Origin: Gemmatimonadota bacterium
GTDB lineage: Bacteria; Gemmatimonadota; Gemmatimonadetes; Longimicrobiales; Gaopeijiaceae
DNA length: 57,321 nucleotides
Reading direction: 5' to 3'
NCBI GenBank assembly: GCA_029863525.1
Contig: JAOTVL010000005.1
Span: 1-57,321 of the forward strand
Shown piece by piece: positions 404 through 28,171 of this stretch (within the stretch, counting starts at the first letter, position 1; every line of letters starts with the position of its first letter). Made by a program: the position numbers and the translations under genes. The notes beneath the pieces are model-generated. The model saw only the letters and a program-made list of their open reading frames with translations. It had not been told where the DNA came from and made no database searches.

Positions 404-775
404 ATGACGTTTCAACGACGCGCGCTGGGCTCGAGCCTGGCCCTCTTCGCTCTCTTGGCGCTGGCCGGTCCGGCAGCGGCGTGGGCTCAAGACGCCCCGC
501 CGACCCCCGACCGGGAGCAGCTCGTGCGTTTCGCGCAGGTCCACCTCGCCATCAACGTCGCCCGTGACGAATTCCACGGGGCTATCGCCCGGGTGCACGA
601 TGCGGAAGGACGCAACCGCGCCCGGGAAGAGGTCGACACCAAGATCGCGGCGATTCTCGAAGAGCACGAGATGACCCGCGAGGAGTACGACGACTTCATC
701 CTCCTGATCAGCCTCGACGGCGACCTGAGGGCGAGCTTCGAGGAGGTCATGGCGGAGCTCCAGGACCCCAGCTGA
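404..775 (+). CDS. secreted DUF4168-like protein
   Basis: 123-residue exported protein. Residues 1-29 form a signal peptide (MTFQRR, a hydrophobic Leu/Ala stretch, then AWAQ). The mature part is an acidic helical domain of about 90 residues with the pattern FAQVHLAINVARDEF, then EVDTKIAAILEEHEMTREEY, which resembles DUF4168 in spacing and in the EMTREEYDDF segment. Start ATG is chosen because it opens the signal peptide and has AGGAA upstream. No catalytic residues are evident. The role of DUF4168 proteins is unknown and the periplasm is the likely location. The gene stands alone, converging with the ankyrin gene across a GC hairpin. Confidence 0.75.
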   Translation: MTFQRRALGSSLALFALLALAGPAAAWAQDAPPTPDREQLVRFAQVHLAINVARDEFHGAIARVHDAEGRNRAREEVDTKIAAILEEHEMTREEYDDFILLISLDGDLRASFEEVMAELQDPS

Positions 776-821: not shown

Positions 822-2690
822 TCAGCAGGACACGCAGTTGTGGTTGTTCTTGGCGCCCAGGCTCTCGAGCAGCTCGATGGTCGCCGGAAACGGGCTGATA
901 CGCTGAAACGGTCCGTTCGCCATGTCGACCGTGGTTCGTCCCTCCCTGCTCACCGCGGTCACGTCGGCCCCCTGCTCCACCAAGTAGAGGATCAACTCGT
1001 TGTCGCCCCGCGACGCGGCATGGTGCACGGCGTTGTAGCCGTTGTGGTCGCGCGCGTTCACGTCGGCCCCGAGCTCCTCGACCAGATACCGGACCGCGGG
1101 CAGCCACCCATCCGGCACGACACGATGGATGTTCGCCGCGTACCCCTCTCCGTAGCCGACCCCCGTGGCGGCGTGAATCGGATAGGCGCCGGGTCCACCG
1201 ACCTCGACGGGCGGTAGGCCGGAGGGGTCGGGTCCCACGGTCGCCGGGCCGCGACCGAACCGGCCGCCCGCCGTCTTCATGGTCGGGATGTTCGGATCGG
1301 CTCCGTATGCGACCAGCATCTTCATGGCGTCGAGGTCGAGCGCGTAGGCGGCACGCCAGAAGGGCGTCGCGCCCATGCGATCCACACGCAGGTAATCGTC
1401 ACCGAAGGTGGTGAACCAGAGCTGCTTGGTGAGACGGACATTCGGATCCACACCGGCCTCCAGGAACGCCTTCATGAGCTCCAGGTAGGTCACCTCCTGC
1501 TGCATGTAATCGGCGGGCTGCGGGTGCCGCGACTTCGGAATCCACTGCGTGTTGAGCGTCGTGTACAGCGGTGTAGCGTTCGCGTCCGAGGCGATCCCCG
1601 GGTCGGCCCCCGCCTCGAACAGCCTCATCGCCAGGTCGAAATGGCCGTTGATCGTGGCAATGAGGAGCGGCGTGGAGTGGTCTCCGCCGCTCTGCTGGTC
1701 GATGTCCACGCCGGCCTGGACGAGCGCCATCGCGGTCTCGATATGGCCTTCCCGTGCGGCCAGGTGCAGCGGCGACAGACCACCGTAGCCACCCACCAGC
1801 TGGGCGTGCGAATAGCGCGACGAGGGCACGCGATCGCGTTGCTGGTCGTTGATCTCCTCACGCGACGGAGCCCGGTCCGGGGTGCCGGCGCCGGCTGGCG
1901 GACCGCCGGGGCGCGCTCCGGGATCGGGCCGATCCCCCCGCTGCTGCGAGGGCGCGCCTGCGGAGCCTGGAGGTCCCCCTCGTCCGGCCGGGGCTCTCCC
2001 CTCGGCTGCGGCCATGATCTGCTGGTGGATCTGCTCCTGACGTGCCCGGTCCTCGCGGTCTTGGGTTTCGCGTTGGTCCATGTCCATCACGCGCGCGGTG
2101 AGCGAGGCGTCGGCCCCCGCCACCAGGAGGGTGCGCACGACGTCGGTGCGACCCGCGGCCGCGGCGTACATGAGCGGCGTTTGGAGCCATCGAGGCTCCT
2201 TGGCGTCGACCTCGGCGCCGTGTTCGAGCAGCGCCTGAACCGCTCGGAGGCTCCCGGAGGCCGCCGCGTAGTGGAGCGGCTGCACGCCGGCCGGTGACGT
2301 CCGGGCGCGCGCATCGGCCTCGCCCTCGAGAAGCACCTCCACGACGTTGGCCGCCCCCTTCTTCGCCGCGATGTGCAGCGGCGTGTAGGCGCCGACCCGG
2401 GTCACCGAGCCCGCGTTGGCCCCGGCCACCAGGAGCAGCTCGGCCATCTCGGGGTTGCCGTGCTCGGCGGCCCAATGGAGCCCGGTCATTCCGTCTCCCT
2501 GCGACGCGTTCACGTCTTCCCCGTCTCGCAGCAGCGACCGGACCGTCGCGACGTCGTTCTTCATGGCCGCGTCGGCGACCGGCGCTTCGGGCGCGCCTCC
2601 GCCCCACAGCACGAGGGTCGCCGCGAGGGCACCCCAGGCATGGGCTCGCAGCGAGGGGGACAGGCGGATCTTCGAGGCTCCAGTTGTCAT
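822..2690 (-). CDS. secreted ankyrin-repeat protein
   Basis: 622 residues: N-terminal signal sequence (hydrophobic AWGALAATLVLW), then ankyrin repeats in two blocks. Block one (about 40-200) shows repeated TGLHWAAEHGN, TPLHIAAKKG, QPLHYAAASG and TPLMYAAAAG units. A low-complexity Gly/Pro/Arg/Gln linker follows (about 215-290). Block two (about 300-600) contains SPLHLAAREGH, TPLLIATINGH, TPLYTTLNTQ, TPFWRAAYALD and NAVHHAASRGD. The tail ends with NCVSC. Ankyrin arrays bind proteins. An exported one suggests a periplasmic or surface scaffold. It is the last gene of the operon with the two DUF1592/DUF1552 pairs, 15 nt after the DUF1552 stop, so a job tied to those proteins is likely but unproven. 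Confidence 0.9.
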   Translation of the reverse strand: MTTGASKIRLSPSLRAHAWGALAATLVLWGGGAPEAPVADAAMKNDVATVRSLLRDGEDVNASQGDGMTGLHWAAEHGNPEMAELLLVAGANAGSVTRVGAYTPLHIAAKKGAANVVEVLLEGEADARARTSPAGVQPLHYAAASGSLRAVQALLEHGAEVDAKEPRWLQTPLMYAAAAGRTDVVRTLLVAGADASLTARVMDMDQRETQDREDRARQEQIHQQIMAAAEGRAPAGRGGPPGSAGAPSQQRGDRPDPGARPGGPPAGAGTPDRAPSREEINDQQRDRVPSSRYSHAQLVGGYGGLSPLHLAAREGHIETAMALVQAGVDIDQQSGGDHSTPLLIATINGHFDLAMRLFEAGADPGIASDANATPLYTTLNTQWIPKSRHPQPADYMQQEVTYLELMKAFLEAGVDPNVRLTKQLWFTTFGDDYLRVDRMGATPFWRAAYALDLDAMKMLVAYGADPNIPTMKTAGGRFGRGPATVGPDPSGLPPVEVGGPGAYPIHAATGVGYGEGYAANIHRVVPDGWLPAVRYLVEELGADVNARDHNGYNAVHHAASRGDNELILYLVEQGADVTAVSREGRTTVDMANGPFQRISPFPATIELLESLGAKNNHNCVSC

Positions 2691-2705
2691 GGTCGTCTCC
2701 CGCGC

Positions 2706-4121
2706 CTACCGGTCGGGCGCCGTGGTGCTCGGCATGGTGAGGGGCAGCTCACCGGTGCTGTCCCCGAAGCTGTCGATGTCGTCGTGGCCGAGGGTGTGCA
2801 ACATCGACAACATCGCGTTGGCCATCGGCGTGCCGTCGGGCGCCTTCAGGTGGAGGTTGCCCTCGAGCTTTCCGTTGGCGTGACCCAATACGACGAGCGG
2901 TGCCCGCCGGTGGTTGTGGATGTTCCCGTCGGCCATGGGCGATCCGAAGACGATCATCGTCTTCTCGAGCAAGTCGGTGCCGCCCTCGTCGATGTCTTTC
3001 AGCTTCTGGAGGAAATACGGAAGCATGCTGACGTGGTATTTGTTGATGACCGCGAAGTCGAGGATTGCCGCCTCGCGCCCACCATGGTGCGACGCCGGGT
3101 GGAACGGCGTCTCCGTGCCGCTTTCCGGGTAGACGCGCGACGAAGCGTCGCGTCCTGTCTTGAACGAGAACACGCGTGTCATGTCCGAAGCGAACGCGAG
3201 CGCCTGCAGGTCGAACATGAGATGCATGTGCTCGGTGAACGAGTCGGGGACGCCCGCGGGGGCGCCCGGCAGCTCGCGCTCCTCACCCGACGAATTCTGG
3301 GCCTCGACCGACTGGATGCGCCGCTCGATCTCCCGCACGTTGTCGAGGTACCGATCCACGCGGTCGAGGTCCTGCGGCCCGAGTCGCCCACGCATGCGGG
3401 CCATGTCTTCGGTGATCCAATCGAGAATGCTCCCGCTCGTACGGCGGCGGCGGGCCCGCTCGGCGGGGGAGCCCCCTGCACCGAAGAGGAGGTCGAACGC
3501 GACGCGCGGATCGCGGATCATCGGCAGGGGCTCGGTCGGCGACGCCCAGCTGATCGAATCGGTGTAGACGCAGGAATAGCCGTAGGCGCATCCGCCCGCC
3601 TGATCCACGTTCTCGATACAGAGCTGCATGGAGGGGATCGGTGTGTTCTGCCCGAACCGGTTCGCGTAGATCTGATCGAGCGACGTTCCGACGTAGACGT
3701 CCGAGCTCTCGGTCTGCTTCGGATGCGACTGCGTGAGGTAGACCGAGCTCGACCGGAAGTGGTCGCCCCCGATCTCGTGCGGCTGGAACGCCTCGGCCAT
3801 GCGGACATCGGTGTTGCTGACGATCGTCAGATAGTCGCGCCACGGATCGAGAGGAAGCAGCGCGCTCGGTGTGAGATCGAAGGCGCTGCCGACGTCGGCC
3901 GGCGCCCACAGATTCTGGCTCGCGCCCCACTCGTTGCTGCCCGCCGCCCCGTGCACGAGCTCGATGGCCACCAATCGCGTGGGGTCGGATTCGTCCAAGC
4001 CACGGCCCGCGCGAAGTCGACCGGCCGGGACCATGGCATCCAGAAACGGCAACGCCACGCTGGCACCCATTCCACGGAGGAAGGTCCGGCGGTGCATCTT
4101 CTGTCCGGTGATGAACTCCAT
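2706..4121 (-). CDS. DUF1552 protein, copy A
   Basis: 471 residues. The N-terminus carries a twin-arginine-like motif (HRRTFLRGMG) followed by a hydrophobic stretch, indicating export in folded form. The rest matches the DUF1552 family: ELVHGAAGSNEWG, LTIVSNTDVRMAEAF, EIGGDHFRSS, YLTQSHPKQT, GTSLDQIYA, then the C-terminal MIVFGSPMADGNIHNHRRAPLV. DUF1552 proteins have no proven reaction. Their genes nearly always sit beside a DUF1592-type c-type cytochrome gene, as here (22 nt downstream of copy A of that gene). It closely resembles the DUF1552 protein at 6665-8077, so the two are recent paralogues. The last residues (TTAPDR) diverge between copies. Confidence 0.92.
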   Translation of the reverse strand: MEFITGQKMHRRTFLRGMGASVALPFLDAMVPAGRLRAGRGLDESDPTRLVAIELVHGAAGSNEWGASQNLWAPADVGSAFDLTPSALLPLDPWRDYLTIVSNTDVRMAEAFQPHEIGGDHFRSSSVYLTQSHPKQTESSDVYVGTSLDQIYANRFGQNTPIPSMQLCIENVDQAGGCAYGYSCVYTDSISWASPTEPLPMIRDPRVAFDLLFGAGGSPAERARRRRTSGSILDWITEDMARMRGRLGPQDLDRVDRYLDNVREIERRIQSVEAQNSSGEERELPGAPAGVPDSFTEHMHLMFDLQALAFASDMTRVFSFKTGRDASSRVYPESGTETPFHPASHHGGREAAILDFAVINKYHVSMLPYFLQKLKDIDEGGTDLLEKTMIVFGSPMADGNIHNHRRAPLVVLGHANGKLEGNLHLKAPDGTPMANAMLSMLHTLGHDDIDSFGDSTGELPLTMPSTTAPDR

Positions 4122-4143
4122 GTCGTTCGTCTCCCCTAGGGGC

Positions 4144-6651
4144 TCAGTTCAGGTTGTCTGCCGCGACCGTGGCCGCGCTCTGCATGCGGAAGGCGTCGCT
4201 GCGAACGATGCCGATGAAGAACGACGACAGTCGGTAGTCGTCCCGTTCGGCGTCCCGTACGATCCGGCGGATCGTGGGCTGGTCGTAATACTCCACCCGT
4301 CGGCCGAGCGCGTACGCCATGAGGTTCGACGCGAACGTGCGCACCAGCGGAATCGGACGTTTCAGGAGTGCCTGCTGGAGTTCCACGGGACTCGTGATGG
4401 GCGTGCCGTCGTAGAAGTCGCCCCGCGTGTCGAGCGAGTTGCCGTTCTCACGGATGCGCCATTTGCCCGTGACGCCGTAACTGTCGAGCGCCAAGCCGAT
4501 GGGGTCCATGAAGCGATGGCACGCGTTGCAGGTGGGGTTCGCGCGGTGGATCTCCATGCGCTCGCGCGTCGTGAGTACGCGACCCCCGTCCGACGCCTCG
4601 GTCTCCTCGAGATCCGGGACGCCCGGAGGAGGAGGAGGCGGTGGCGTGCCCATCAGCACTTCCATGACCCACTTGCCGCGAAGGACGGGTGACGTCCGCC
4701 CCGCGTGCGAGGTCAGCGTGAGAACGCTCGCGTGCCCCAAGACGCCGCGCCGACGGTCGTTGGGATACTCGACCCGGCGGAAGTCATCGCCGGTCACCCC
4801 CTCGAAACCGTAGTGACTCGCCAGGCGCTCGTTCACGAACGTGTAGTCCGCAGTGTACAGCTCGAACAGCGACCGGTCTTCCTTCACGAGATTCGTGAAG
4901 AAGAGCTCGGTCTCCTGTAGCATGTCGTCCGCGAGCTGCTGATGGAAGTCGGGCTCGAGACGGACGTCCGGGTGAACCTTGTCGAGGTCCTGCAGCCGTA
5001 GCCACTGGGCGGCGAACCGGGATCCGAGCGCCCGCGCCTTCGGATCGGCGAGCATCCGCCGGACCTGGGCTTCGAGCTCGTCGTCGTCGGACAGCTCCCC
5101 GCGCTCCGCCAGGTCGAGGAGCTCGGCGTCGGGTGGGGCACCCCAGAGGAAGTACGAGAGCCGCGCCGCGAGATCCTCGTCGGCGACGGGATACAGGCCT
5201 CGTCGATCCTCGTCGCTCGGCGCTTCCTCGAAGCGGAAGACGAAGTGCGGGCTGGCGAGCATCGCTTCCAGCGCGGTGCGGATTCCGATCTCGAAGCCGC
5301 CCTCGTCGCGGCCGTACTCGTAGAAGCCGAGGAGCGCCTCGCGGTCCTCCTCTCTGAGTGGACGGCGGAACGCCTGCGTGCCGAGACGCTCGATGATCGA
5401 CTCGGCGCACGAGCGCTCTTCGCCGGGGCCCAGAGGACGGCACGTGAAGATCGCTCGCCGGATCGGCGTGTCGGAAACGCCAGTCACACTTTCCGGACCC
5501 ACGATGACGAGGTCACGCATGTGCGGCAGCGACATGATGCCGTAGGTGCCAGCAATAGCCGTGCTGGCCAACGACCAATCGTGTGGCGAGATGAGATCCT
5601 GCACGGGGCCGTCCGCTTTCTCCAGGAACGCGGCGGTCACGCGGTGGGGTCCGGCGGTGATGTGCAGGGCGTCGGTACGCATCTCCACGCCGCCGGGGTT
5701 CGACACGTGCATCCACCGATCGATGTCGAGCAAGGCGACCCGCTCGCCGTCGATGGAGATCTCGACCCGTTCGGGATCGTCGGCGGTGGTGTTCAGGTTC
5801 GAGGCGCCGTTGCCGACGGCGGTTCCCGTGGTCTCGTGGTGAAACGAGAAGCGGAAGACGTACGCCCCGTCCGCCGGAAAGTTGTGCGTCACGGAAATGC
5901 CGCCGCGCGTCCCGTACGGAGCGCCCGGTACGCGCTCGGTCTGAGATGCCCAACGGGGCACCCGGTACTGCGCCTCTCGCGACGTCGCGTTCGGGTCGCC
6001 CACCGCGAGGCGGCTGATTTCGGCGGCGGCGTTCAGGTACGCGTCGAGCAGTGTGGGCGACAGCATCTGCGCGTCGGCGATGTTGTCGAAATTCGCGCTC
6101 TTCGTGTCCGGCGGGAGGTAGTCCGCACCGTCGATTTGGAGGCCCAGGAGGGCGTGCACGGAGGCCGCGTACTCCGCCTGGTTCAGACGCTGGAACGTCC
6201 GTCCGCCCGGGTTCGGATCGGCTTCGGCGGCACGATCGAGCCGGTTCTCCAGCGCTTCGACCAACGCCGTGAGCGTGTCACCGGCCGGCCTCGAGACGCC
6301 CGGAGGCGGCATCATCCCGGCGCGCAGCTTCACCACCATCTTCTCGGCGGTCGCGCCGTCGAGCTCGGGACGCGTCGCGTCGAATTCCTCGAGAGACAGG
6401 TTTCCGCGAAGGCGTCGATCGGAATGACAGCGGACGCAGTACTCCTCGATGACGTCGTTGTCGTCGACGGCGACGGGACCGGCACCGATGAGCGCCGCGG
6501 TCCCTTCATGCCCACCCACGTCGCTCGGCACGACACTCCCGACCGCACGTGCCCATCCGGGTCCCTGGGTGGTCGCGAGTTCGGTGCCCCCGAGGGTGAT
6601 CACCAGTCCACCCGCCACCGCAAGCGAGACCATCGTTTTCATTCCGGTCAT
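4144..6651 (-). CDS. DUF1592 diheme cytochrome c-type protein, copy A
   Basis: 835 residues with signal sequence. Domains in order: a planctomycete-type c heme domain with CVRCH at residues 72-76 and the following RRLRGNLSLEEFD; DUF1587 (FQRLNQAEYAASVHALLGL, about 150-215); a carbohydrate-binding-like beta region (about 235-370); DUF1595 (about 400-480); DUF1592 (ARLSYFLWGAPPDAELL, about 495-625); DUF1588 with PTCNACHRFMDPIGLALD, giving a second CxxCH near residue 710; DUF1585 at the C-terminus (MAYALGRRVEYYDQP). Two covalent hemes are predicted, so a periplasmic redox enzyme or electron carrier acting with its DUF1552 partner. Substrate unknown. A proline run (about nine Pro) precedes GVPDLEE and is kept in copy B. 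Confidence 0.92.
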   Translation of the reverse strand: MTGMKTMVSLAVAGGLVITLGGTELATTQGPGWARAVGSVVPSDVGGHEGTAALIGAGPVAVDDNDVIEEYCVRCHSDRRLRGNLSLEEFDATRPELDGATAEKMVVKLRAGMMPPPGVSRPAGDTLTALVEALENRLDRAAEADPNPGGRTFQRLNQAEYAASVHALLGLQIDGADYLPPDTKSANFDNIADAQMLSPTLLDAYLNAAAEISRLAVGDPNATSREAQYRVPRWASQTERVPGAPYGTRGGISVTHNFPADGAYVFRFSFHHETTGTAVGNGASNLNTTADDPERVEISIDGERVALLDIDRWMHVSNPGGVEMRTDALHITAGPHRVTAAFLEKADGPVQDLISPHDWSLASTAIAGTYGIMSLPHMRDLVIVGPESVTGVSDTPIRRAIFTCRPLGPGEERSCAESIIERLGTQAFRRPLREEDREALLGFYEYGRDEGGFEIGIRTALEAMLASPHFVFRFEEAPSDEDRRGLYPVADEDLAARLSYFLWGAPPDAELLDLAERGELSDDDELEAQVRRMLADPKARALGSRFAAQWLRLQDLDKVHPDVRLEPDFHQQLADDMLQETELFFTNLVKEDRSLFELYTADYTFVNERLASHYGFEGVTGDDFRRVEYPNDRRRGVLGHASVLTLTSHAGRTSPVLRGKWVMEVLMGTPPPPPPPGVPDLEETEASDGGRVLTTRERMEIHRANPTCNACHRFMDPIGLALDSYGVTGKWRIRENGNSLDTRGDFYDGTPITSPVELQQALLKRPIPLVRTFASNLMAYALGRRVEYYDQPTIRRIVRDAERDDYRLSSFFIGIVRSDAFRMQSAATVAADNLN

Positions 6652-6664
6652 ACCGTCTTTTCCC

Positions 6665-8077
6665 TCATCCGGCAGAAGTCGTCGACAACGGCATCCCCAG
6701 CGAGAACTCGCCTGTGCTGTCGCCGAAGCTGTCCAAGTCGTCGAGTCCGAGCTCGTGTAAGAGCGTCAGCATCACGTTCGCCATCGGCGTGCCGTCCGGC
6801 GCCTTGAAGTGAAGGTTGCCGTCCAGCGCACCGTTGCCCTTCCCCAACAAGACAAATGGGCACCGCCGATGGTTGTGGAGATTCCCGTCGGCCATCGGAG
6901 ACCCGAATACGATCATGGTCTTTTCGAGCAGATCCGTTCCACCCTCGTCGAGCGCCTTCAGACGCTCGAGGAAGTACGGAAGCATGCCCACGTGGTACTG
7001 GTTGATCTTGTGGAAGTCGAGGATTGCTTCCTCACGTCCACCGTGGTGCGACGCCGGGTGGAACGGCCGATCCGTGCCACTCTCCGGGTACACCCGACCC
7101 GAAGCGTCCCGGCCCGTCTTGAAGGAGAAGACCCGCGTCATGTCCGAGGCGAAGGCGAGCGCCTGGAGGTCGAACATCAGGCGCATGTGCTCCTCGAAGG
7201 AGTCCGGCACTCCGGCCGGCGCGCCCGGAAGCTCTCGCTCCTCGCCCGTGGCGTTGCGCGCTTCGACCCCCTGGATGCGCCGCTCGATCTCGCGGACGGT
7301 GTCCAGGTAACGTTCCAGCCGCTGGGCGTCGTTTGCGCCGAGCTCCCGCTTGAGGTACGCGACCTCCCCGGTGATCCAATCGAGGATGGAGCTGTTCGTG
7401 CGGCGACGCATGGCTCGGTCTTCGACCGTTCCACCGGCGCCGAAGAGCATGTTGAACACCACGCGCGGGTCCCGGATCATCGGCAACGGCTCGCTCGGCG
7501 AGGCCCAACTGATGGTGTCCGTGTACACGCAAGAGTAGCCGTAGGCGCAGCCACCGGATTGGTCGACGGGCTCGATGCAGAGTTGCATCGACGGGATCGG
7601 CGTGTCCTGACCGAATCGGCCCGCGTAAACCTGGTCCATCGACGTGCCGGCGAAGACGTCGGAGCCTCGGGTCTGCTTCGGGTGCGACTGCGTCAGGAAT
7701 ACCGCGCTCGAACGAAAGTGATCGCCGCCGATCTCGTGGGCCTCGAACGCCTCGGCCATCCGAACGTCGGTGTTGCTCACGATCGTGAGGTAGTCGCGCC
7801 ACGGATCGAGCGGGCTCAGCGCGCTGGTGGTGAGGTCGAAATCGCGCCCGACTTGCGGCGGATTCCAGAGATGCTGCGTGGCGCCCCACTCGTTGCATCC
7901 GGCCGCCCCGTGTACGAGCTCGATCGCCACGAAGCGGGTGGCATCGGCGGCGGCGCGGCCGGAGGCCGTGAGTCGCCCGGCCGGAACCATCGCGTCGAGG
8001 AAGGGCAGCGCGACCGTCGCACCCATCCCCCGAAGGAACGTGCGTCGTTCGATGTGGTTGCCGGTGATGAAGTTCAT
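6665..8077 (-). CDS. DUF1552 protein, copy B
   Basis: 470 residues, same architecture as the copy at 2706-4121: twin-arginine-like ERRTFLRGMG, hydrophobic segment, ELVHGAAGCNEWG, EIGGDHFRSS, FLTQSHPKQT, MIVFGSPMADGNLHNHRR. Its ATG overlaps the stop of the upstream DUF1592 gene by 4 nt (ATGA), so the two are translationally coupled, as expected for partners made in fixed ratio. Differences from copy A are scattered over the length, with runs of identity in the catalytic-looking core, consistent with duplication of a two-gene unit and later divergence. Exported, probably by Tat. Reaction unknown. Confidence 0.92.
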   Translation of the reverse strand: MNFITGNHIERRTFLRGMGATVALPFLDAMVPAGRLTASGRAAADATRFVAIELVHGAAGCNEWGATQHLWNPPQVGRDFDLTTSALSPLDPWRDYLTIVSNTDVRMAEAFEAHEIGGDHFRSSAVFLTQSHPKQTRGSDVFAGTSMDQVYAGRFGQDTPIPSMQLCIEPVDQSGGCAYGYSCVYTDTISWASPSEPLPMIRDPRVVFNMLFGAGGTVEDRAMRRRTNSSILDWITGEVAYLKRELGANDAQRLERYLDTVREIERRIQGVEARNATGEERELPGAPAGVPDSFEEHMRLMFDLQALAFASDMTRVFSFKTGRDASGRVYPESGTDRPFHPASHHGGREEAILDFHKINQYHVGMLPYFLERLKALDEGGTDLLEKTMIVFGSPMADGNLHNHRRCPFVLLGKGNGALDGNLHFKAPDGTPMANVMLTLLHELGLDDLDSFGDSTGEFSLGMPLSTTSAG

Positions 8078-10551
8078 GGCCGGGAGACCTCGACTCGTTG
8101 CATGCGGAAGGCGTCGCTCGTCGCGACCCCACGAATGAAGGCGGAAATGCCGTACCCCTCGCTCGCTGCATTCCGGACGATCGCGCGGATGGTGGGCTGG
8201 TCGTAGTACTCGACCCTTCGACCGAGTGCGTAGGCCATGAGATTTTGCGTGAACGTCCGCATGAGCGGTTCAGGACGCTTCAATAGGGCGTCGACCAGCG
8301 CCGAAGGCGAATCGATCGACGTGCCGTCGTACAACTCGCCGCGCGTATCGAGAGGATTGCCGTGCTCTCGGATCCGCCACCGTCCCGTGACGTCGAAGGC
8401 ATCGAGCGCGAGTCCGATCGGGTCGATGAAGCGGTGACAGGAGTTGCACGTCGGATTCGCACGGTGGGCCTCCATCCGCTCGCGCGTCGTGAGCGTGCGG
8501 CCCTCCGACGCGGCGTCGGTCTCCTCCAGGTCCGGCACGCCCGGAGGGGGTGGCGGGGGAGGCGTGCCCATGAGCACCTCCATGACCCATTTTCCACGGA
8601 GGACGGGCGACGTGCGATCCGCGTGGGACGTCAACGTGAGCACGCTGCCGTGCCCGAGCACGCCGCGCCGACGGGCGTCCGGGTATTCGACACGGCGAAA
8701 CGCACGCCCTGTCACCCCCGGAATCCCGTAGTGGGCGGCCAGTCGCTCGTTCACGAAGGTGTAATCGGCCTGATAGAGGTCGAAGACGCTCCCGTCGCGC
8801 CGGACAAGGTCGGTGAAGAACAGCTCGGTCTCGCGGCGCATGGCGTCGGCGAGCTGCTGGTCGAAGTCGGGGAACCAGTAGGAATCCGGATGCACCTTGT
8901 CGAGGTCCTGAAGCCGGAGCCACTGCGACGCGAAGCGCGTGCCGAGCGCCTCCGCGCGCGGATCCGCGAGCATGCGATCGACCTGGGTGCTCAGCTCGCC
9001 GGGGTCGCCGAGCCGGCCCTCGTCGGCGAGTCGTCGGAGCTCGGCGTCGGGCGGCAGCGCCCAGAGGAAGAACGAGAGGCGACTCGCGAGCGCGTGGTCG
9101 CTGATGCGGTACACGCCGCCCGGGCCGGCCTCCTGCGCGGGCCGCTCGAAGCGGAAGACGAAGTGCGGGCTGGCCAGGATCGCTTGGAGTGCCGTCCGGA
9201 CGCCGATCTCGAAGCCGCCCTCCTCTGCGCCCTCGTCGTAGAAGGCCAAGAGCGCGTCCGCGTCCCGGTCCGTAAGAGGTCGGCGGTATGCCTCGGCACC
9301 GAGGCGGGTCAGGATCGCGCTCGCGCACGGGCGTTCTTCGCTCGGTCCCACTGGGCGGCAGGTGAAGATCCGATCCCGGACCGGGTGCTGCGACACGCCC
9401 GTGACCCGATACGGACCGCCGATCACGAGATCCCGCAGATGCGGAAGCAACGTGAGCCCGTAGCCTCCCATTCCCGTGTGACGATCCGCAATCGACCAGT
9501 CGTGCGGCGAGAGGAGGTCGTCGACGGGACCCTCCGCGGTTTCGAGGAACGCCGCCGTTACACGGTGCGGGCCAGCCCGTATGGCGATCGGCGCCGTCTT
9601 CATCGAGATCTCCCACGGGTCGGCGTAGCTGAGCCACGAGTCGACCTCGAGGAGCGCGGCGCGCTCGCCGTCGATCGAGATCTCGACCTGCTCTCCACGC
9701 GCGAGCTGCCCCGCGAAGCCGTCACCGGTGGTGGTGTGATGGAAGTAGATCGAGAAGACGTAGTCGCCGTCCGCCGGGAAGTTGTGCACGACGGACGTGC
9801 CCCCGCGTGTTCCGAACGGGGCACCGTCCACGCGCTCCGTCTGTGACGCGTATCCGGACACCGTGTAGGTCGCCTCGCTCGGCGTCGCGGTGGGGTCCCC
9901 GACCGCAAGACGCGCGAGCTCGGCCGCGGCGTTCAGGTACGCGTCGAGGAGCGTGGGCGACAGCATCTGCACGTCGGCGATGTTGTCGAAGTTCTCGCTC
10001 TTCGTGTCGGGCGGTAGATACGCGCCCGGATCGATCTGCAAACCGAGCAGCTCGTGAATCGACGCGGCGTACTCGGCGCGATTCAGACGTTGAAAGGTGC
10101 GCCCACCCGGATTCGGCCGGTCGGCGGCGGCACGATCGAGCCGCGCCTCGAGCGCCTCCACGAGCTGGACCAGCGTGTCCGCCGCGGGTCGGGACACGCC
10201 CGGAGGCGGCATCATCCCGGCGCGCAGCTTGACGACCATCCGCTCGGCGATCTCCGCGTTGTCCTCTGGGCGGAGCGCGTCGAAACGCTCGAGCGACAGA
10301 TTCCCGCGGAGACGTCGCTCCGAGTGGCATCGGACGCAGTACTCCTCGATGACGACGTTCTCGTCGAAGCCCCCCGACCGCGCGTCGGCCGCCGGCTGCG
10401 AGGCGGCCAATTGCGAGACGGCCGGGTGCATGACGCGCACGCCGGAATCGGACGCGCCGGTGGCGGGTCGGGACTCTGGAGCCCCGACCGACAAGACCAC
10501 GAAGCCGCTGGCCACAAGAAGCCACGCGGACACCGTCTTGGCGCCGGTCAT
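8074..10551 (-). CDS. DUF1592 diheme cytochrome c-type protein, copy B
   Basis: 825 residues. Start ATG at 10551 is chosen because the protein then begins MTGAKTVSAW, matching the start of copy A (MTGMKTMVSL), and opens a signal sequence. The reading frame remains open far upstream, but that extension runs antisense through the amidohydrolase gene and is not real. Domains as in copy A: CVRCH at residues 72-76, DUF1587, beta region, DUF1595, DUF1592, DUF1588 with CNSCH near residue 703, and DUF1585. First gene of the five-gene operon; its promoter must lie in 10552-10740, shared with the divergent amidohydrolase. Likely periplasmic electron-transfer enzyme of unknown substrate. Confidence 0.92.
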   Translation of the reverse strand: MTGAKTVSAWLLVASGFVVLSVGAPESRPATGASDSGVRVMHPAVSQLAASQPAADARSGGFDENVVIEEYCVRCHSERRLRGNLSLERFDALRPEDNAEIAERMVVKLRAGMMPPPGVSRPAADTLVQLVEALEARLDRAAADRPNPGGRTFQRLNRAEYAASIHELLGLQIDPGAYLPPDTKSENFDNIADVQMLSPTLLDAYLNAAAELARLAVGDPTATPSEATYTVSGYASQTERVDGAPFGTRGGTSVVHNFPADGDYVFSIYFHHTTTGDGFAGQLARGEQVEISIDGERAALLEVDSWLSYADPWEISMKTAPIAIRAGPHRVTAAFLETAEGPVDDLLSPHDWSIADRHTGMGGYGLTLLPHLRDLVIGGPYRVTGVSQHPVRDRIFTCRPVGPSEERPCASAILTRLGAEAYRRPLTDRDADALLAFYDEGAEEGGFEIGVRTALQAILASPHFVFRFERPAQEAGPGGVYRISDHALASRLSFFLWALPPDAELRRLADEGRLGDPGELSTQVDRMLADPRAEALGTRFASQWLRLQDLDKVHPDSYWFPDFDQQLADAMRRETELFFTDLVRRDGSVFDLYQADYTFVNERLAAHYGIPGVTGRAFRRVEYPDARRRGVLGHGSVLTLTSHADRTSPVLRGKWVMEVLMGTPPPPPPPGVPDLEETDAASEGRTLTTRERMEAHRANPTCNSCHRFIDPIGLALDAFDVTGRWRIREHGNPLDTRGELYDGTSIDSPSALVDALLKRPEPLMRTFTQNLMAYALGRRVEYYDQPTIRAIVRNAASEGYGISAFIRGVATSDAFRMQRVEVSRP

Positions 10552-10740: not shown

Positions 10741-12021
10741 ATGATTACGACTCTCCGCCGCCTCGCCATCGGGCTCGCCCTCGTCGCCGCCGGCTGCGAA
10801 GCCACCGACGGCACCTCCACCACCGCGTTCACCGGCGCCACGGTGTGGGATGGAACCGGTTCGCCCCCGATCGCCGACGCCACGATCCTGGTCCGTGAGG
10901 GTCGCGTCGTCTCGGTCGAATCGAATGGCGCCGTTCCCTCCGGAGCCACCGAGATCGGGCTCGACGGTCGGTACGTGGTACCCGGACTCGTGAACGCACA
11001 CGGCCACGTGAGCGGGGCGTGGGCCGACGGGGACGTCGTGGGCGAGCTCGAGCGGGTCCGTGGCGACCTGGAGCTCTTCGCGCGCTACGGGGTGACCACC
11101 GTGAACAGCCTCGGCGACGGGGAGCCCGTCGTGGCCGCCCGCGACTCCGCCTCGGACACGGACCCCCGCGCACGACTGCGCGCGGCCGGTCCCGTCATCA
11201 CCGCCGAGGAGCCAGCCGCCGCTCGCGAGGCGGCGCTCGACAACGCGGAGATGGGTGTCGACTGGCTGAAGCTCAGGGTGGACGACAACCTGGGCACGTC
11301 GGCGAAGATGCCGTGGAACGCCGTCCAGGCGGTCCTGACGGTCGGTGACGAGACGGGGATCCCCGTCGCCACGCACCTCTTCTACCTCGAGGACGCGAAA
11401 CGCCTCCTCGAGATGGGCACCGCCATGGTCGCCCATTCCGTTCGAGATCGCCCCGTGGACGCGGCGTTCACCGATCGACTGCGGGCCTCGGGCGTGTGCT
11501 ACGTGCCGACGTTGACGCGCGAGGTGAGCACCTTCGTGTATGCCGATCGGCCCGAGTTCTTCGACGATCCGTTCTTCATCCGTTTCGCGAACTCCGAGGA
11601 AGTCGCGCGACTGTCCCAAGCCGATTTCATGCGACGCATGGCCGACAGCCCGACCGCCGCAGGCTATCGGGAGGGGCTCGCCCACGCGAAGGAGAACGTA
11701 AAGACGCTCCACGATGCCGGGGTCATGGTCGCGATGGGCACGGACGCCGGTCCCGCGGGCCGCTTCCCCGGCTACTTCGAGCACATGGAGCTGTGGATGA
11801 TGGTCGACGCCGGGCTCTCGCCCGCGGACGCCCTGCGGAGCGCGACGGCGGTGGCCGCCGAGTGTGCGCGGGTCGACGACGTCGGCACGCTCGAGCCGGG
11901 GCATTGGGCCGACTTCTTGGTGCTTGGCGAAGATCCGTTGGTCGATATCCGTGCGACGCGGAGCCTGGAGCGGGTCTACATCGCGGGCGCCCGGGTAGCA
12001 CCGGATGGGCCCGGCGGCTGA
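10741..12021 (+). CDS. amidohydrolase family lipoprotein
   Basis: 426 residues. Lipoprotein signal with lipobox VAAGC at about residue 19, then the N-terminal beta-sandwich (ATVWDGTGSPPIADATILV) and a metal-dependent TIM barrel: NAHGHVSG (HxH metal pair, about 86-88), DWLKLRVDDN (candidate bridging Lys, about 176), ATHLFY and VAHSV histidines, and MGTDAGP with the catalytic Asp. The C-terminal return of the sandwich is LEPGHWADFLVLGEDPL. This is the imidazolonepropionase-like branch, which hydrolyses C-N bonds in cyclic or peptide-like substrates; the exact substrate cannot be read. ATG at 10741 is preferred over one at 10693 because it opens the lipoprotein signal. Its end overlaps the next gene by 17 nt. 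Confidence 0.9.
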   Translation: MITTLRRLAIGLALVAAGCEATDGTSTTAFTGATVWDGTGSPPIADATILVREGRVVSVESNGAVPSGATEIGLDGRYVVPGLVNAHGHVSGAWADGDVVGELERVRGDLELFARYGVTTVNSLGDGEPVVAARDSASDTDPRARLRAAGPVITAEEPAAAREAALDNAEMGVDWLKLRVDDNLGTSAKMPWNAVQAVLTVGDETGIPVATHLFYLEDAKRLLEMGTAMVAHSVRDRPVDAAFTDRLRASGVCYVPTLTREVSTFVYADRPEFFDDPFFIRFANSEEVARLSQADFMRRMADSPTAAGYREGLAHAKENVKTLHDAGVMVAMGTDAGPAGRFPGYFEHMELWMMVDAGLSPADALRSATAVAAECARVDDVGTLEPGHWADFLVLGEDPLVDIRATRSLERVYIAGARVAPDGPGG

Positions 12022-24303: not shown

Positions 24304-25641
24304 CTAACGATCGAGCACGCGGCGCACCGCTGCGCGATCGACCTTCCCGTTCGGGTTGCGCGGTATCTCTCCGTCGAGCTGCCACGTGCGCGGTAGCTTC
24401 GCGGGGGAGAGCGTCTCGCGGAGGTGGCGCTCCAGCTCCTCCAGGTCGAACTCACCGACCACGGGCTCGACCCACGCACCGACGCGCTCCCCCCATTCCT
24501 CGTCGGGAATCCCCACGACACACGCGTCAATCACGGTAGGGTGCGCCCGAAGCGCCTCTTCGACTTCGACCGCGTCGACGGTGACGCCGCCAGTCACGAT
24601 TCGGTCGATCCGCCGACCGGTGACCCAGAGTCGTCCCTCCGCGTCGATGCGCCCGAGGTCTCCCGTTCGATACCAACCGTCTTCGTCCGCGAGTGGGCCC
24701 GCGTCGGGGCCCACGTACCCGAGCGCCCGAGTGGCTCCGCGCGCGGCGATCTCGCCCGCGGCGTCCACGCGGAGGTCGACTCCCGGGAGCGGGGGGCCGA
24801 CGGTTCCAGGGACCGATCGGGTGAGCTCCGGCGGCGCGGTCGCGATCTGCGAAGACATCTCCGTGGCGCCGTACGTGAGCGCGATCGGCCAGCCACGGTC
24901 GATGGCCCGCTGCACCAGCGCAGCCGGAGCGTGGGCGCCACCGACCAGCACGCAGCGAAGGGAGCTCGGCGGCGCCTGCTCCCCATAGGCGTCGAGCAGG
25001 CGCATAAGCTGCGTGGGGACGAGCGACAGGTGCGTCGGCGCGCCTCGATGGCGGGTCGCGTCCGAGCCGGGGGCTCGATCGAGGAGGTCGGCGATCGCCT
25101 CGATACCGGGTTCGTCGGGCACCACCAGCGCGCCACCCAGCAGGATCGAGCGGACGACCAGGGCGAGACCACCGACGTGCGCAGGCGAGAGAGAGGCGAC
25201 CCAGACGTCGCTCGATCCGAGCCCCAGCCGATCACGCGCGGCGCGAGCACTCGCCTCCAGGTTGGCGAAGGAGAGGGCGACCCCACGTGGGCGACCCGAT
25301 GTCCCCGACGTCCACAGGACGACGAAGGTCTCGGATGGGAGCGTGCCAAGCTCGACCGCACCCTTCGCCGCCACCCTTTCGGACTCGGTCAGCCGAGCGT
25401 GGAGCGGCACGGGGATCGCCCCGACGCGCCAGAGCGCCAGGAGCTCGACGACCGAGGCGACCGATGGCTCCGCGACGAAGGGGACGACCTCGCCCGAAGA
25501 GCGGCCCTCGGCGAACAGCGCGTCACGGCGTGCGTCGACCCGATCGTTCAACTCCGCGTAGCTCGATACGAGCCCACGACGCACGAGCGCGGGCGCCCGA
25601 CCTTTGGCTCCCGAACGCGCGAGCACGTCGACCGCGCTCAC
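24304..25641 (-). CDS. menE: o-succinylbenzoate--CoA ligase
   Basis: 445 residues of the ANL acyl-CoA synthetase family. Activates o-succinylbenzoate with ATP and CoA for menaquinone synthesis. Motifs: WTSGTSGRPRGV (P-loop-like, about residue 110), ALTYGATEMSSQI (A5), DEDGWYRTGDLG (A7), GRIDRIVTGG and PRNPNGKVDR with the C-terminal catalytic Lys (A10). Shorter than general acyl-CoA ligases, as usual for MenE. Its start overlaps the menA stop by 4 nt; last gene in the men operon. Assignment rests on family plus context. Confidence 0.92.
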   Translation of the reverse strand: MSAVDVLARSGAKGRAPALVRRGLVSSYAELNDRVDARRDALFAEGRSSGEVVPFVAEPSVASVVELLALWRVGAIPVPLHARLTESERVAAKGAVELGTLPSETFVVLWTSGTSGRPRGVALSFANLEASARAARDRLGLGSSDVWVASLSPAHVGGLALVVRSILLGGALVVPDEPGIEAIADLLDRAPGSDATRHRGAPTHLSLVPTQLMRLLDAYGEQAPPSSLRCVLVGGAHAPAALVQRAIDRGWPIALTYGATEMSSQIATAPPELTRSVPGTVGPPLPGVDLRVDAAGEIAARGATRALGYVGPDAGPLADEDGWYRTGDLGRIDAEGRLWVTGRRIDRIVTGGVTVDAVEVEEALRAHPTVIDACVVGIPDEEWGERVGAWVEPVVGEFDLEELERHLRETLSPAKLPRTWQLDGEIPRNPNGKVDRAAVRRVLDR

Positions 25642-26528
25642 CCGAGTGCCAGTCCCAGTCCGAGCAGGGCCCCGTAGACCACGACGGCCCGCGCGGTGGA
25701 TCCGAGCGCGGGCAGAAGCTCACGGGGATCATGGAACGTGCGGACGGCCCGCAGGGGCGTTCGCACGAGCGGCAAGAAGAGGAGCGCGGCGAGCGCCGCC
25801 TCGGGCCACCCGAAGCGTAGCACGCCGACGACGGGAACGGCGGCGGCCGCGACGACGAGGGCGTGGTATTCGACCCGAGTCCCCGTGACGCCCAGACGGA
25901 CCGCCAAGGTACGCTTGCCCGCGACCCGATCGGTCTCGATGTCGCGGAGATTGTTGACCACCAGAATCGCGGTGTTCAGCGCCCCGACACCGGCGCCGGC
26001 CAGCACCGCGTCGGGAGGCCAGGCGAGCGCCTGCACGTAGTACGTGCCGCCCACCGCGATGAGCCCGAAGAACAGGAACACGAAGAGGTCGCCCAAGCCG
26101 TGATAGGCGAGCGGGAACGGTCCACCCGTGTAGAGCACGGCGCACGCGACGGAGGCGAGCCCGATCCACACGATCGGCCAGCCCGCCACCCACACCAGGT
26201 ACACGCCGACGAGCATGGCCGCGCCGAGCACGGCCCACATGGCCCGCTTGACGGACGCCGGGGGGAGAATCCCCGCTTGCGTGACGCGCACCGGACCGAC
26301 CCGCGCTTCGGTATCCCCGCCCCGCACGAAATCGTAGTAGTCGTTGGCGAAGTTCGTCCCGATCTGGATGAGAACCGCGCCGAGGAGGGCGGCCACCGCC
26401 GGTAACCAGGCGAGCGTCTGATGGAAGGCCGCCAGGCCGGCACCGGTCAGGACGGGCGCCACGGCGGCGCTCAGCGTCTTCGGCCGCGACGCCAGCAACC
26501 ACGCCCCTCCGCGGGACAACTCTGTCAC
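25638..26528 (-). CDS. menA: 1,4-dihydroxy-2-naphthoate polyprenyltransferase
   Basis: 296 residues, about 9 membrane helices, UbiA superfamily. Attaches a polyprenyl tail to dihydroxynaphthoate in the inner membrane. GTG start at 26528 is preferred because GGAGGAGG lies about 7 nt upstream and the protein then begins MTELSRGGAWLLASRPKTL, as MenA proteins do. First Asp motif NDYYDFVRGGDTE near residue 61, second LRDIETDRVAGKRTLAVRLG-type segment (DIETD) near 190. The order between the cyclophilin lipoprotein and menE, with a 4-nt overlap into menE, supports the call. Confidence 0.94.
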   Translation of the reverse strand: MTELSRGGAWLLASRPKTLSAAVAPVLTGAGLAAFHQTLAWLPAVAALLGAVLIQIGTNFANDYYDFVRGGDTEARVGPVRVTQAGILPPASVKRAMWAVLGAAMLVGVYLVWVAGWPIVWIGLASVACAVLYTGGPFPLAYHGLGDLFVFLFFGLIAVGGTYYVQALAWPPDAVLAGAGVGALNTAILVVNNLRDIETDRVAGKRTLAVRLGVTGTRVEYHALVVAAAAVPVVGVLRFGWPEAALAALLFLPLVRTPLRAVRTFHDPRELLPALGSTARAVVVYGALLGLGLALG

Positions 26529-26565
26529 GGCGCCTCCTCCCCTCGTTACGGCCGCGTGGTTCTGG

Positions 26566-27225
26566 TCACCGCCAATAACCGACGACCCTCGTGGAGATGA
26601 TCGAGTCGAGCTGAGGATAGTCTCGGCGCAGATAATCGTTGCCGAGCAGACGGATCGAATCCTGACTCGGCATCCGTTCCTGATAGGCACCGTAGAAGCC
26701 GTCGATCACCTCGAGGCCCTCGACGATCTCGCCGATCGGCGGATACCCTTCGACGCCTCCACTCATGAGTCGATCGAGTCGCTCGTTGTCGACCAGATTC
26801 ACGAAGAGCTGGTACGAACGAGTCTCCGGCCCTCCTCGTGCGAAGGCGACCACGCCCCGGCGGTTGCTCGCCACGGTCGGTTCGTCGGGCAGCCCATGAT
26901 CTCTCCACACCGAGTCCAGGACGGGGTCGCCGGAGTATCCCCATTGGGCGACGAAGCCGTCGACGACTCTGTAGATCCGTGCACCGGCGTAGAAGTTCTC
27001 TTCCATGAGGTGGTAGGCGCGATCCACGCCCGCCGGTGACCACTGGCGACGCATCTTCACGGTGAACGTGCCCTCGCTCGTCTCGATGTCGACCAGGAAG
27101 GAGTCAGGTGCTTCGAGGTTCAGCACCTCCGGAGAGGGATCGTACAGCGCCGCATTTTGACCGCACGCCGCCACCGCGAGCGCAGCGGCGATCGCCCAAG
27201 CGAGGGAGGAGCCGCGGGCATGCAC
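26566..27225 (-). CDS. cyclophilin-type peptidylprolyl isomerase lipoprotein
   Basis: 219 residues. GTG at 27225 opens a lipoprotein signal (MHARGSSLAWAIAAAL, lipobox VAAC at about residue 21). The rest is a cyclophilin domain: VDIETSEGTFTVKM, NFYAGARIYRVVDGFVAQWG (the family's F-x-R-V-x-x-x-F-x-x-Q-x-G pattern, with the catalytic Arg), GVVAFARGG, SYQLFVNLVDNERLD and GYPPIGEIVEGLEVIDGFY. A periplasmic protein-folding enzyme. It sits between menB and menA (gaps 32 and 37 nt) although it has no known part in menaquinone synthesis. The usual Trp of cyclosporin-sensitive members is not obvious. Confidence 0.88.
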   Translation of the reverse strand: MHARGSSLAWAIAAALAVAACGQNAALYDPSPEVLNLEAPDSFLVDIETSEGTFTVKMRRQWSPAGVDRAYHLMEENFYAGARIYRVVDGFVAQWGYSGDPVLDSVWRDHGLPDEPTVASNRRGVVAFARGGPETRSYQLFVNLVDNERLDRLMSGGVEGYPPIGEIVEGLEVIDGFYGAYQERMPSQDSIRLLGNDYLRRDYPQLDSIISTRVVGYWR

Positions 27226-27257
27226 ACCGCTCCATCCCGAAACCGGCGGCGACTCCC

Positions 27258-28097: not shown

Positions 28098-28171
28098 GTC
28101 GGTTCGGTCAGGGTGTGGGCGGTCGAGAATCGACGCTGGATCAGGGCTCTCTCGAGTGGAGTCGCGGGCGA

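What the first reader, a model, noticed from the sequence alone, without database searches (positions are those of the whole stretch)
822..10551. Tandem duplication of a DUF1592/DUF1552 pair ending in an exported ankyrin protein
Two (diheme DUF1592 cytochrome, twin-arginine DUF1552) units sit head to tail with 4-22 nt junctions, and a secreted ankyrin-repeat protein closes the operon. The copies share architecture, the CVRCH and CNxCH heme sites and even the proline run before GVPDLEE, yet differ throughout, so both were kept under selection. DUF1552/DUF1592 pairs are known as neighbours but have no assigned reaction. Retention of two paralogous pairs plus a scaffold-like protein suggests a periplasmic redox complex made of two related modules. 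This is my leading candidate for an undescribed system.
Basis: partly seen in the sequence, partly recalled or inferred. Interest (0 to 1): 0.8.

Follow-up and report, generated by a model that had tools for sequence, protein, structure and literature searches.

The report
Exported cytochrome, metalloprotein and ankyrin trio
This bacterium carries several copies of a three-gene set for exported proteins (a two-haem cytochrome, a metalloprotein shaped like a sulfatase, and an ankyrin protein that usually ends in a fixed pair of cysteines) that nearly always sit together in its relatives, which points to one unstudied machine, perhaps for processing sugars outside the cytoplasm.

Summary
In detail: two DUF1592/DUF1552 pairs and an exported ankyrin gene lie head to tail at 822-10551 (-). 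The real unit is a triplet, DUF1592–DUF1552–ankyrin, of which the double pair is a local variant. In 81 sampled genomes of the window's phylum, DUF1552 and this ankyrin family occur in the same 32 genomes; 122 of 128 DUF1552 matches have the ankyrin gene downstream on the same strand. Triplets also occur in Acidobacteriota and Woeseiaceae. The double pair recurs in five other genomes, and a and b are separate ortholog groups: old, not recent. New here: 75 of 83 full-length ankyrin proteins end in CxxC. DUF1552's model resembles the alkaline phosphatase/sulfatase superfamily and DUF1592 has a β-domain resembling CBM6/35/36, both only at weak E-values. Best reading: an exported three-protein redox module, perhaps for glycans. 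Reaction, complex and electron path are unproven. The held paper library had no paper with DUF1592+ankyrin or DUF1552+DUF1592.

The parts
8074..10551 (-). DUF1592a: exported two-haem protein, first gene (825 aa)
   Evidence: Pfam PSD3, PSD5, PSD4, PSCyt3, PSD2 and weak PSCyt1; CVRCH at 10324-10338, CNSCH at 8434-8448
6665..8077 (-). DUF1552a: RR-signal (Tat-type) HXXSHH protein (470 aa)
   Evidence: Pfam PF07586 E 6.9e-83; RRTF 8036-8047, HPASHH 7043-7060
4144..6651 (-). DUF1592b: exported two-haem protein (835 aa)
   Evidence: Pfam PSD3, PSD5, PSD4, PSCyt3, PSD2; CVRCH 6424-6438, CNACH 4516-4530; AF2 model pLDDT 72.8, pTM 0.70
5479..5979 (-). β-domain of DUF1592b (about residues 225-391) resembling CBM6/35/36 folds
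   Evidence: strands in the model; Foldseek 7ay3, 2w3j, 8j3y, 4qb2, 5fui, none at E<=1e-3; no Pfam CBM by sequence
2706..4121 (-). DUF1552b: RR-signal (Tat-type) HXXSHH protein (471 aa)
   Evidence: Pfam PF07586 E 2e-80; RRTF 4080-4091, HPASHH 3084-3101, His57 within VHGA 3945-3956; AF2 pLDDT 68.2, pTM 0.75
822..2690 (-). exported ankyrin-repeat protein, last gene (622 aa)
   Evidence: Pfam Ank families, best E 5.2e-56; hydrophobic N-terminus and only two Cys
825..848 (-). C-terminal tail NNHNCVSC of the ankyrin protein (residues 615-622)
   Evidence: Cys619 and Cys622 invariant in 27 of 27 aligned; CxxC tail in 75 of 83 full-length proteins
404..775 (+). neighbour, convergent: small exported DUF4168-like protein, recurrent between the first and second triplet
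   Evidence: cluster in 12 loci of 12 genomes; DUF4168 4.4e-5, just under Pfam's cut-off
10747..12021 (+). neighbour, divergent: exported amidohydrolase-family protein (start codon not fixed)
   Evidence: Pfam Amidohydro_1 3.8e-21; DNA similarity to the same place in L021, L023, L025, L038

Best explanation
The region encodes an exported three-component redox module whose basic unit is DUF1592–DUF1552–ankyrin; in this lineage an extra DUF1592–DUF1552 pair is placed in front and appears to share one ankyrin protein. Proposed mechanism: the DUF1552 protein, folded in the cytoplasm and exported by the Tat route, holds a metal centre in an alkaline phosphatase/sulfatase-like fold and is the substrate-facing part; the DUF1592 protein binds the substrate, probably a glycan, through an internal CBM-like β-domain and passes electrons through its two c-type haems; the ankyrin protein docks the two, and its mobile CxxC tail acts as a redox or metal-binding arm at the interface. 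Different triplets in one genome (up to 12 DUF1552 matches) would serve different substrates. Shown: gene order, near-obligate linkage, export-type signals and haem motifs by sequence, the conserved CxxC tail, ortholog-group retention. Inferred: folds (weak matches), glycan substrate, complex formation, direction of electron flow and the role of the tail.
For: Linkage: same 32 of 81 genomes; 122 of 128 DUF1552 matches followed by the ankyrin gene; 3 of 125 listed ankyrin matches lacked one upstream. In three Acidobacteriota genomes 27 of 27 (10+9+8) DUF1552 matches have it downstream (matched by eye). Stop-to-start gaps of DUF1552 and ankyrin genes: 80 cases, 26 of them overlapping by 1-26 nt, commonly 4 nt. 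DUF1552 tree: ankyrin-linked clade of 66 rows, SH-aLRT 100, long stem; the 3 unlinked rows in it are two first pairs of a double pair and one gene at a contig end. CxxC tail in 75 of 83. Two CxxCH in 74 of 75 DUF1592. Fold hints. TonB receptor-like genes near 14 of 40 triplet loci against 1 of 20 control windows. Literature: Cbp2D of Cellvibrio japonicus, with a DUF1587 domain and two CxxCH domains, is needed for growth on insoluble cellulose and its X183 cytochrome domain can start LPMO reduction (PMC12542752 abstract and sections 19, 22; PMC8981238 section 5 and a passage). Some PSCyt genes of Verrucomicrobia carry CBMs and neighbour sulfatases (PMC5615132 section 13).
Against: No structure match reached E 1e-3 and no CBM was seen by sequence; jelly-roll folds without sugar binding also appear among the hits. 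The neighbourhood enrichments are modest (p 0.012, 0.047, 0.023 in 12 tests; none survives Bonferroni) and the loci are not independent. One L030 locus has DUF1592 followed directly by an ankyrin gene without DUF1552, so DUF1552 is not always needed beside it. Seven DUF1552 genes in three Acidobacteriota genomes lack the family ankyrin downstream, so the pair works without it elsewhere. No complex was modelled. No sequence-level PDB relative.
Confidence: 0.4

Rival explanations
1. The ankyrin protein is a maturation factor, not a working subunit: an exported chaperone whose CxxC tail reduces the CxxCH cysteines of DUF1592 before haem attachment, or delivers haem or metal to DUF1592 or DUF1552. 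It would work like Cj1386 of Campylobacter, an ankyrin protein reported to traffic haem to catalase.
For: The ankyrin gene is last in the operon and beside a haem protein gene in 80 counted DUF1552–ankyrin neighbours. The tail is a CxxC without the His of a haem-attachment site; no CxxCH was found there in the 75. L030 keeps DUF1592–ankyrin without DUF1552, with the tail intact. The Cj1386 precedent is given in PMC4518328 (passages seen).
Against: DUF1592/DUF1552 pairs elsewhere lack this ankyrin and must mature without it. Each triplet keeps its own diverged copy (45-56% identity within the window's genome), which a general chaperone would not need.
Confidence: 0.25
2. A respiratory or detoxification module without glycan substrate: DUF1552 oxidises or hydrolyses a small organic substrate and DUF1592 feeds electrons to the respiratory chain.
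For: Creatininase-family genes near 9 of 40 triplet loci against 0 of 20 controls (p 0.023); a conserved divergent amidohydrolase-family gene; haems suited to electron transfer.
Against: The CBM-like β-domain and TonB receptor-like neighbours point to polymers or oligomers; Cbp2D is linked to cellulose.
Confidence: 0.2
3. DUF1552 is a plain sulfatase-like or phosphatase-like hydrolase and the haem protein is only a binding or sensing partner; there is no redox reaction.
For: Every one of the 50 Foldseek rows shown looks to be of the alkaline phosphatase superfamily (the superfamily label is recalled).
Against: Haem sites kept in 74 of 75. I could not point to a conserved nucleophile of the known sulfatases; the family is marked by HXXSHH instead.
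Confidence: 0.12
4. The grouping is only shared ancestry of an operon, with no joint function.
For: Related genomes are not independent samples.
Against: Linkage holds in up to 12 diverged copies per genome and across three phyla, with the same genomes having or lacking both.
Confidence: 0.03

Closest known systems
DUF1592/PSCyt3 and DUF1552 gene pairs of Planctomycetota and Verrucomicrobia ('planctomycete-specific' cytochromes; PMC5615132, section 13 read)
   Same: Same Pfam domains and gene adjacency; example: plasmid of Planctomyces sp. SH-PL62 with DUF1587, DUF1592, DUF1552, DUF1080 in a row. Function stated as unknown in that paper.
   Different: In that Planctomyces example the next gene is DUF1080, not ankyrin. 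The window's DUF1552 lies in a separate ankyrin-linked clade with extra conserved His57 and His404.
Cbp2D/Cbp2E of Cellvibrio japonicus (PMC12542752 abstract and sections 19, 22; PMC8981238 section 5 and a passage)
   Same: Cbp2D has a DUF1587 domain, two single-CxxCH cytochrome domains and a carbohydrate-binding module; genetic role in cellulose growth.
   Different: Cbp2D also has YceI-like and FN3 domains; no DUF1552 or ankyrin partner is described in the parts read. Sequence relation to the window's proteins was not tested beyond the shared domain name.
Cj1386, ankyrin protein for haem trafficking to catalase (PMC4518328, passages seen)
   Same: Ankyrin protein linked to a haem protein.
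   Different: Partner is catalase; no comparison of sequences or tails was made here. The similar AnkB/KatB pair of Pseudomonas is recalled; one search gave only a listing.
Alkaline phosphatase/sulfatase superfamily (LtaS/LtaP, S1 sulfatases, autotaxin)
   Same: Weak Foldseek matches of the DUF1552 model (best 4uop_B, E 4.2e-3, prob 0.99).
   Different: 10% identity, no PDB relative by sequence, HXXSHH instead of the known active-site motifs (recalled).

Membership tests
DUF1592-type two-haem protein | domain order PSD3 (DUF1587), PSD5 (DUF1595), PSD4 (DUF1592), PSCyt3 (DUF1588), PSD2 (DUF1585) over Pfam cut-offs | tested here: met
   both window proteins
DUF1592-type two-haem protein | N-terminal and C-terminal CxxCH | tested here: met
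   74 of 75 relatives have two
DUF1592-type two-haem protein | covalently bound haem | not testable with these tools
   needs protein
DUF1552 (PF07586, HXXSHH) | profile match over cut-off, HXXSHH motif, RR signal | tested here: met
   among 100 DUF1552 proteins of at least 400 aa, 92 have HxxSHH and 98 an RR in the first 22 residues
Alkaline phosphatase/sulfatase superfamily | fold | tested here: inconclusive
   all 50 rows shown fit, but best E 4.2e-3 on a model of pLDDT 68.2
Alkaline phosphatase/sulfatase superfamily | two-metal site and nucleophile | not testable with these tools
   no coordinates available; His341, His345 and His402 (window b numbering) are kept in all three groups, His121 in nearly all
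CBM6/35/36 carbohydrate-binding module | β-sandwich fold | tested here: inconclusive
   7ay3 prob 1.00, TMt 0.58, rmsd 8.1, E 6.2e-3; other jelly rolls also hit
CBM6/35/36 carbohydrate-binding module | sequence-family match | tested here: not met
   three β-domain segments, no Pfam CBM at E up to 5
Ankyrin-linked DUF1592–DUF1552 triplet (group defined here) | exported ankyrin gene directly downstream, same strand | tested here: met
   window and three further loci of its genome; 122 of 128 DUF1552 matches in 32 genomes
Ankyrin-linked DUF1592–DUF1552 triplet (group defined here) | ankyrin protein ending in CxxC | tested here: met
   window NNHNCVSC at the very end; 75 of 83
Cbp2D-like LPMO electron donor | YceI-like and CBM2 domains beside the cytochrome domains | tested here: not met
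   not among the Pfam matches of either window DUF1592
Dot/Icm ankyrin effectors (NCBIfam names) | score over the curated cut-off | tested here: not met
   best 103.5 bits against a cut-off of 600; generic ankyrin similarity

The most novel reading that the evidence does not exclude
The trio is a single exported enzyme split over three proteins, in which the ankyrin protein's C-terminal CxxC tail reaches into a partner's active site as a swinging redox arm or metal ligand supplied in trans. Pointer: in the one DUF1552 subclade whose ankyrin partners lack the CxxC end and have C-x11-C followed by a longer tail instead (6 of 6), the otherwise constant His57 of DUF1552 is Met, and classical DUF1552 without this ankyrin mostly have Asn there (9 of 12). 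This is one evolutionary event, not independent repeats, and L030's DUF1592–ankyrin locus without DUF1552 would place the tail's partner on DUF1592 there.
Probability: 0.15. Interest if true: 0.85.

Novelty: new variant of a known kind. Interest (0 to 1): 0.6.

Why it matters
[quoted passage not shown]). Finding an almost obligate third partner with an invariant-looking CxxC tail gives a concrete handle: a defined three-protein set to co-express, a two-residue mutation to test, and natural experiments (double pairs, DUF1592–ankyrin without DUF1552, the C-x11-C variants). If it is an oxidative glycan machine, it would be a widely distributed secreted redox system in Gemmatimonadota and Acidobacteriota that annotation now lists as unknown domains.

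Tried and rejected
Recent tandem duplication: rejected; a, b and c are ortholog groups. Ankyrin gene as chance neighbour: rejected. Reading the proline run and haem sites as evidence for special retention of both copies: rejected, they are family features. NCBIfam hits to Dot/Icm ankyrin effectors: rejected, far below cut-offs. PDB relatives by sequence: none convincing. CBM by sequence: none. Promoter and terminator scan: 0 promoter-like and 4 terminator-like sites, as in shuffles. Direct overlap of contig C85's left end with C197: none found; their adjacency rests on synteny with L020-L026 and matching intergenic lengths only. Paper searches for ankyrin with Gemmatimonad and periplasm gave two Brachyspira papers, listing only. 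Other papers opened for single passages only: PMC6004670, PMC7789669, PMC2754498, PMC11495043.

Limits of the counts. One search's match list was cut by the tool ('more matches are not listed'); I pasted its first 125 rows and left out the later listed rows, which are further pieces of partly matched genes, and all 128 rows. Edge-to-edge gaps over 1 kb there reflect ankyrin genes matched only in part. The six DUF1552 misses are window pair a (pair b follows), G052:C471 and G058:1585701 (a weaker ankyrin gene directly or two genes downstream), and G061:C48, G059:C208, G046:C70 (not followed up). Of the 81 genomes, 49 had neither family. The DUF1552 tree used 78 rows; L020, L022-L029, L034, L035, L038, L040 were left out as close relatives. 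One search counted only ankyrin proteins of at least 500 aa; the shorter ankyrins of L082, L125 and L138, which lack the CxxC end, are not in the 83. The 8 of 83 without CxxC are 6 C-x11-C variants, L057 (outside the clade) and L041 (reading frame probably broken near the end). The 'SusD-like' label for one neighbour cluster is by eye: Pfam gave no family for its representative. One control family was commoner in controls: S9-like, 3 of 40 against 4 of 20.

Full report
What is there. The minus strand of the window carries DUF1592a (10551-8074), DUF1552a (8077-6665), DUF1592b (6651-4144), DUF1552b (4121-2706) and an ankyrin-repeat gene (2690-822) with junctions of -4, 13, 22 and 15 nt. Both DUF1592 proteins have the domain order PSD3-PSD5-PSD4-PSCyt3-PSD2 and two CxxCH sites; both DUF1552 proteins have an RR signal and HPASHH; the ankyrin protein has a hydrophobic N-terminus and only two cysteines, in the last four residues. 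A convergent DUF4168-like gene (404-775) and a divergent amidohydrolase-family gene (to 12021) flank the set.

The window's own genome. The window is contig C85 of a 3.6-Mb, 83% complete assembly with five DUF1592 and five DUF1552 matches and four close ankyrin matches. The other three loci, on C97, C209 and C197, are single triplets in the same order. So the unit is DUF1592–DUF1552–ankyrin and the window holds one triplet with an extra pair in front.

Taxonomic spread. A scan of 84,980 species genomes with the ankyrin protein gave 23 loci: 19 labelled Gemmatimonadota or groups within it, three Acidobacteriota (including Vicinamibacterales), one Woeseiaceae. DUF1552 was found in all 23, and DUF1592 upstream wherever the contig reached that far (L034 and L040 show only part of DUF1552 at the contig start). 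Because these loci were found through the ankyrin gene, the unbiased test is the reverse one. In 81 genomes drawn from the window's phylum, the DUF1552 profile (E<=1e-10) hit 32 genomes and the ankyrin profile (E<=1e-60) the same 32; 49 had neither; 122 of 128 DUF1552 matches had the ankyrin gene within 2.5 kb downstream on the same strand. The tools name no phylum for these genomes; Gemmatimonadota is inferred from the named nearest relatives. In three Acidobacteriota genomes, reached through their ankyrin loci, 27 of 27 DUF1552 matches have the ankyrin downstream; in the Woeseiaceae genome 2 of 4, the others being one cut by the contig end and one distant copy without it. In a draw of 50 genomes of the phylum of L042, 7 had DUF1552; in the six new ones, 5 of 12 DUF1552 genes (G128, G085, G101) had the family ankyrin and 7 of 12 (G108, G093, G098) did not.

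Phylogeny. A tree of DUF1552 with these outsiders puts the ankyrin-linked genes in one group of 66 rows with SH-aLRT 100 and a long stem (quick method, no bootstrap). The three rows in it without an adjacent ankyrin are the first pairs of the double-pair loci (window, L021) and L136, which ends with its contig. Outside this group ankyrin genes without the CxxC end appear beside some pairs: directly downstream in L082 and in the Novosphingobium plasmid L138, two genes downstream in L057, and divergently in L125. So a link between these pairs and ankyrin proteins may be wider than the CxxC group.

The double pair. Trees of DUF1552 (41 rows) and DUF1592 (34 rows) give matching groups a, b and c: a 6 rows (95/91) and 5 rows (100/100), b 11 rows (100/100) and 10 rows (100/100), c 9 rows (97/93) and 9 rows (100/100). 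The window's two pairs are a and b; C197 is c. The order a-b-ankyrin is visible in L021, L023, L025, L029 (first gene cut by the contig) and L038, and in part in L022. In L020-L026 a second triplet, group c, follows about 1 kb after the first ankyrin gene with the DUF4168-like gene between in most, so C197 is probably the next contig; no sequence overlap of the ends was found. Purifying selection: dN/dS (Nei-Gojobori, dS about 1) 0.16 and 0.26 between a and b, 0.06-0.16 between orthologs.

The ankyrin tail. In 27 aligned ankyrin proteins two cysteines near the C-terminus are invariant while mean column identity is 52%. Among 83 full-length proteins 75 have CxxC within about 12 residues of the end, in 55 with Cys as the very last residue; 61 have no other cysteine after residue 35; the common context is NNHNCVSC; none has a following His. 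Six more form a variant with C-x11-C and a longer tail. Their DUF1552 partners are exactly one six-row group (SH-aLRT 100), in which His57, present in all 82 main rows, is Met; classical DUF1552 have Asn in 9 of 12. This is suggestive of contact between tail and DUF1552 but is a single event. Against it, L030 has a DUF1592–ankyrin locus with an intact CxxC tail and no DUF1552 between.

Structure. DUF1552b modelled at pLDDT 68.2, pTM 0.75; all 50 Foldseek rows shown (of 112) look to be alkaline phosphatase superfamily, best E 4.2e-3. DUF1592b modelled at pLDDT 72.8, pTM 0.70; its β-domain (about 225-391) brings CBM36, CBM35 and CBM6 structures and enzymes with such modules, best single-domain hit 7ay3 with prob 1.00, E 6.2e-3, among other jelly rolls (50 of 643 rows shown). 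Neither reaches E 1e-3. No relative in the PDB by sequence; no CBM by Pfam. No complex could be modelled.

Neighbourhood. Against 20 control windows of the same genomes, 40 triplet loci are richer in TonB receptor-like genes (14 against 1, p 0.012), a cluster that looks SusD-like by eye (11 against 1, p 0.047) and creatininase-family genes (9 against 0, p 0.023); 12 clusters were tested and none survives correction. Copy number reaches 12 DUF1552 matches in G045 and G078, as expected of a module adapted to several substrates (inference).

Mechanism. The best-supported account is an exported redox module in which DUF1552 provides a metal centre, DUF1592 binds substrate and carries electrons, and the ankyrin protein holds them together and contributes a CxxC arm. 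Order, linkage, motifs and constraint are shown; folds are hinted; substrate, complex and electron path are inferred. The nearest experimental lead is Cbp2D of Cellvibrio japonicus, with a DUF1587 domain and two cytochrome domains, which is required for growth on insoluble cellulose and whose X183 domain can start LPMO reduction (PMC12542752 abstract, sections 19 and 22; PMC8981238 section 5 and a passage). The main rival makes the ankyrin protein a maturation factor, as reported for Cj1386 and catalase (PMC4518328 passages).

Novelty. The pair is known and without assigned function (PMC5615132 section 13). In the held open-access library, searches for DUF1552 with DUF1592 and for DUF1592 with ankyrin returned no papers, six papers held any of six family terms, and none of the passages opened from them described an ankyrin partner. 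Subscription papers are not covered. I file it as a new variant of a known kind: a clade of the known pair with a near-obligate third partner.

Noticed in passing
window 24304-31332 (-): Run of genes with AMP-binding, UbiA, enoyl-CoA hydratase, TPP-enzyme and chorismate-binding domains, in order fitting menaquinone biosynthesis (MenE, MenA, MenB, MenD, MenF by recall).
   Followed up: partly
L030 9326-13746: DUF1592 followed after 57 nt by an ankyrin gene ending in NNHKCMSC, with no DUF1552; in the other L030 locus a 282-aa gene sits between DUF1592 and DUF1552.
   Followed up: partly
L033 3120-6850: Two ankyrin genes in a row, both with the CxxC end, behind one DUF1592–DUF1552 pair.
   Followed up: no
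L138 3410-8608 (Novosphingobium plasmid): A distant DUF1592–DUF1552 pair followed directly by a 413-aa ankyrin gene without a CxxC end.
   Followed up: partly
L137 1843-8090 (Planctomyces plasmid): DUF1587, DUF1592, DUF1552 and then DUF1080 in a row: in this pair from another phylum the third position is held by DUF1080.
   Followed up: no
window 404-775 (+): Small exported DUF4168-like protein, found in 12 loci of 12 genomes in this analysis, in most of them between the first and second triplet.
   Followed up: partly
DUF1592b residues Cys404 and Cys415; DUF1552b residues Cys178 and Cys184: Conserved cysteine pairs outside the haem sites (fraction 1.00 of main rows), possible disulfides or partners of the ankyrin CxxC.
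   Followed up: no
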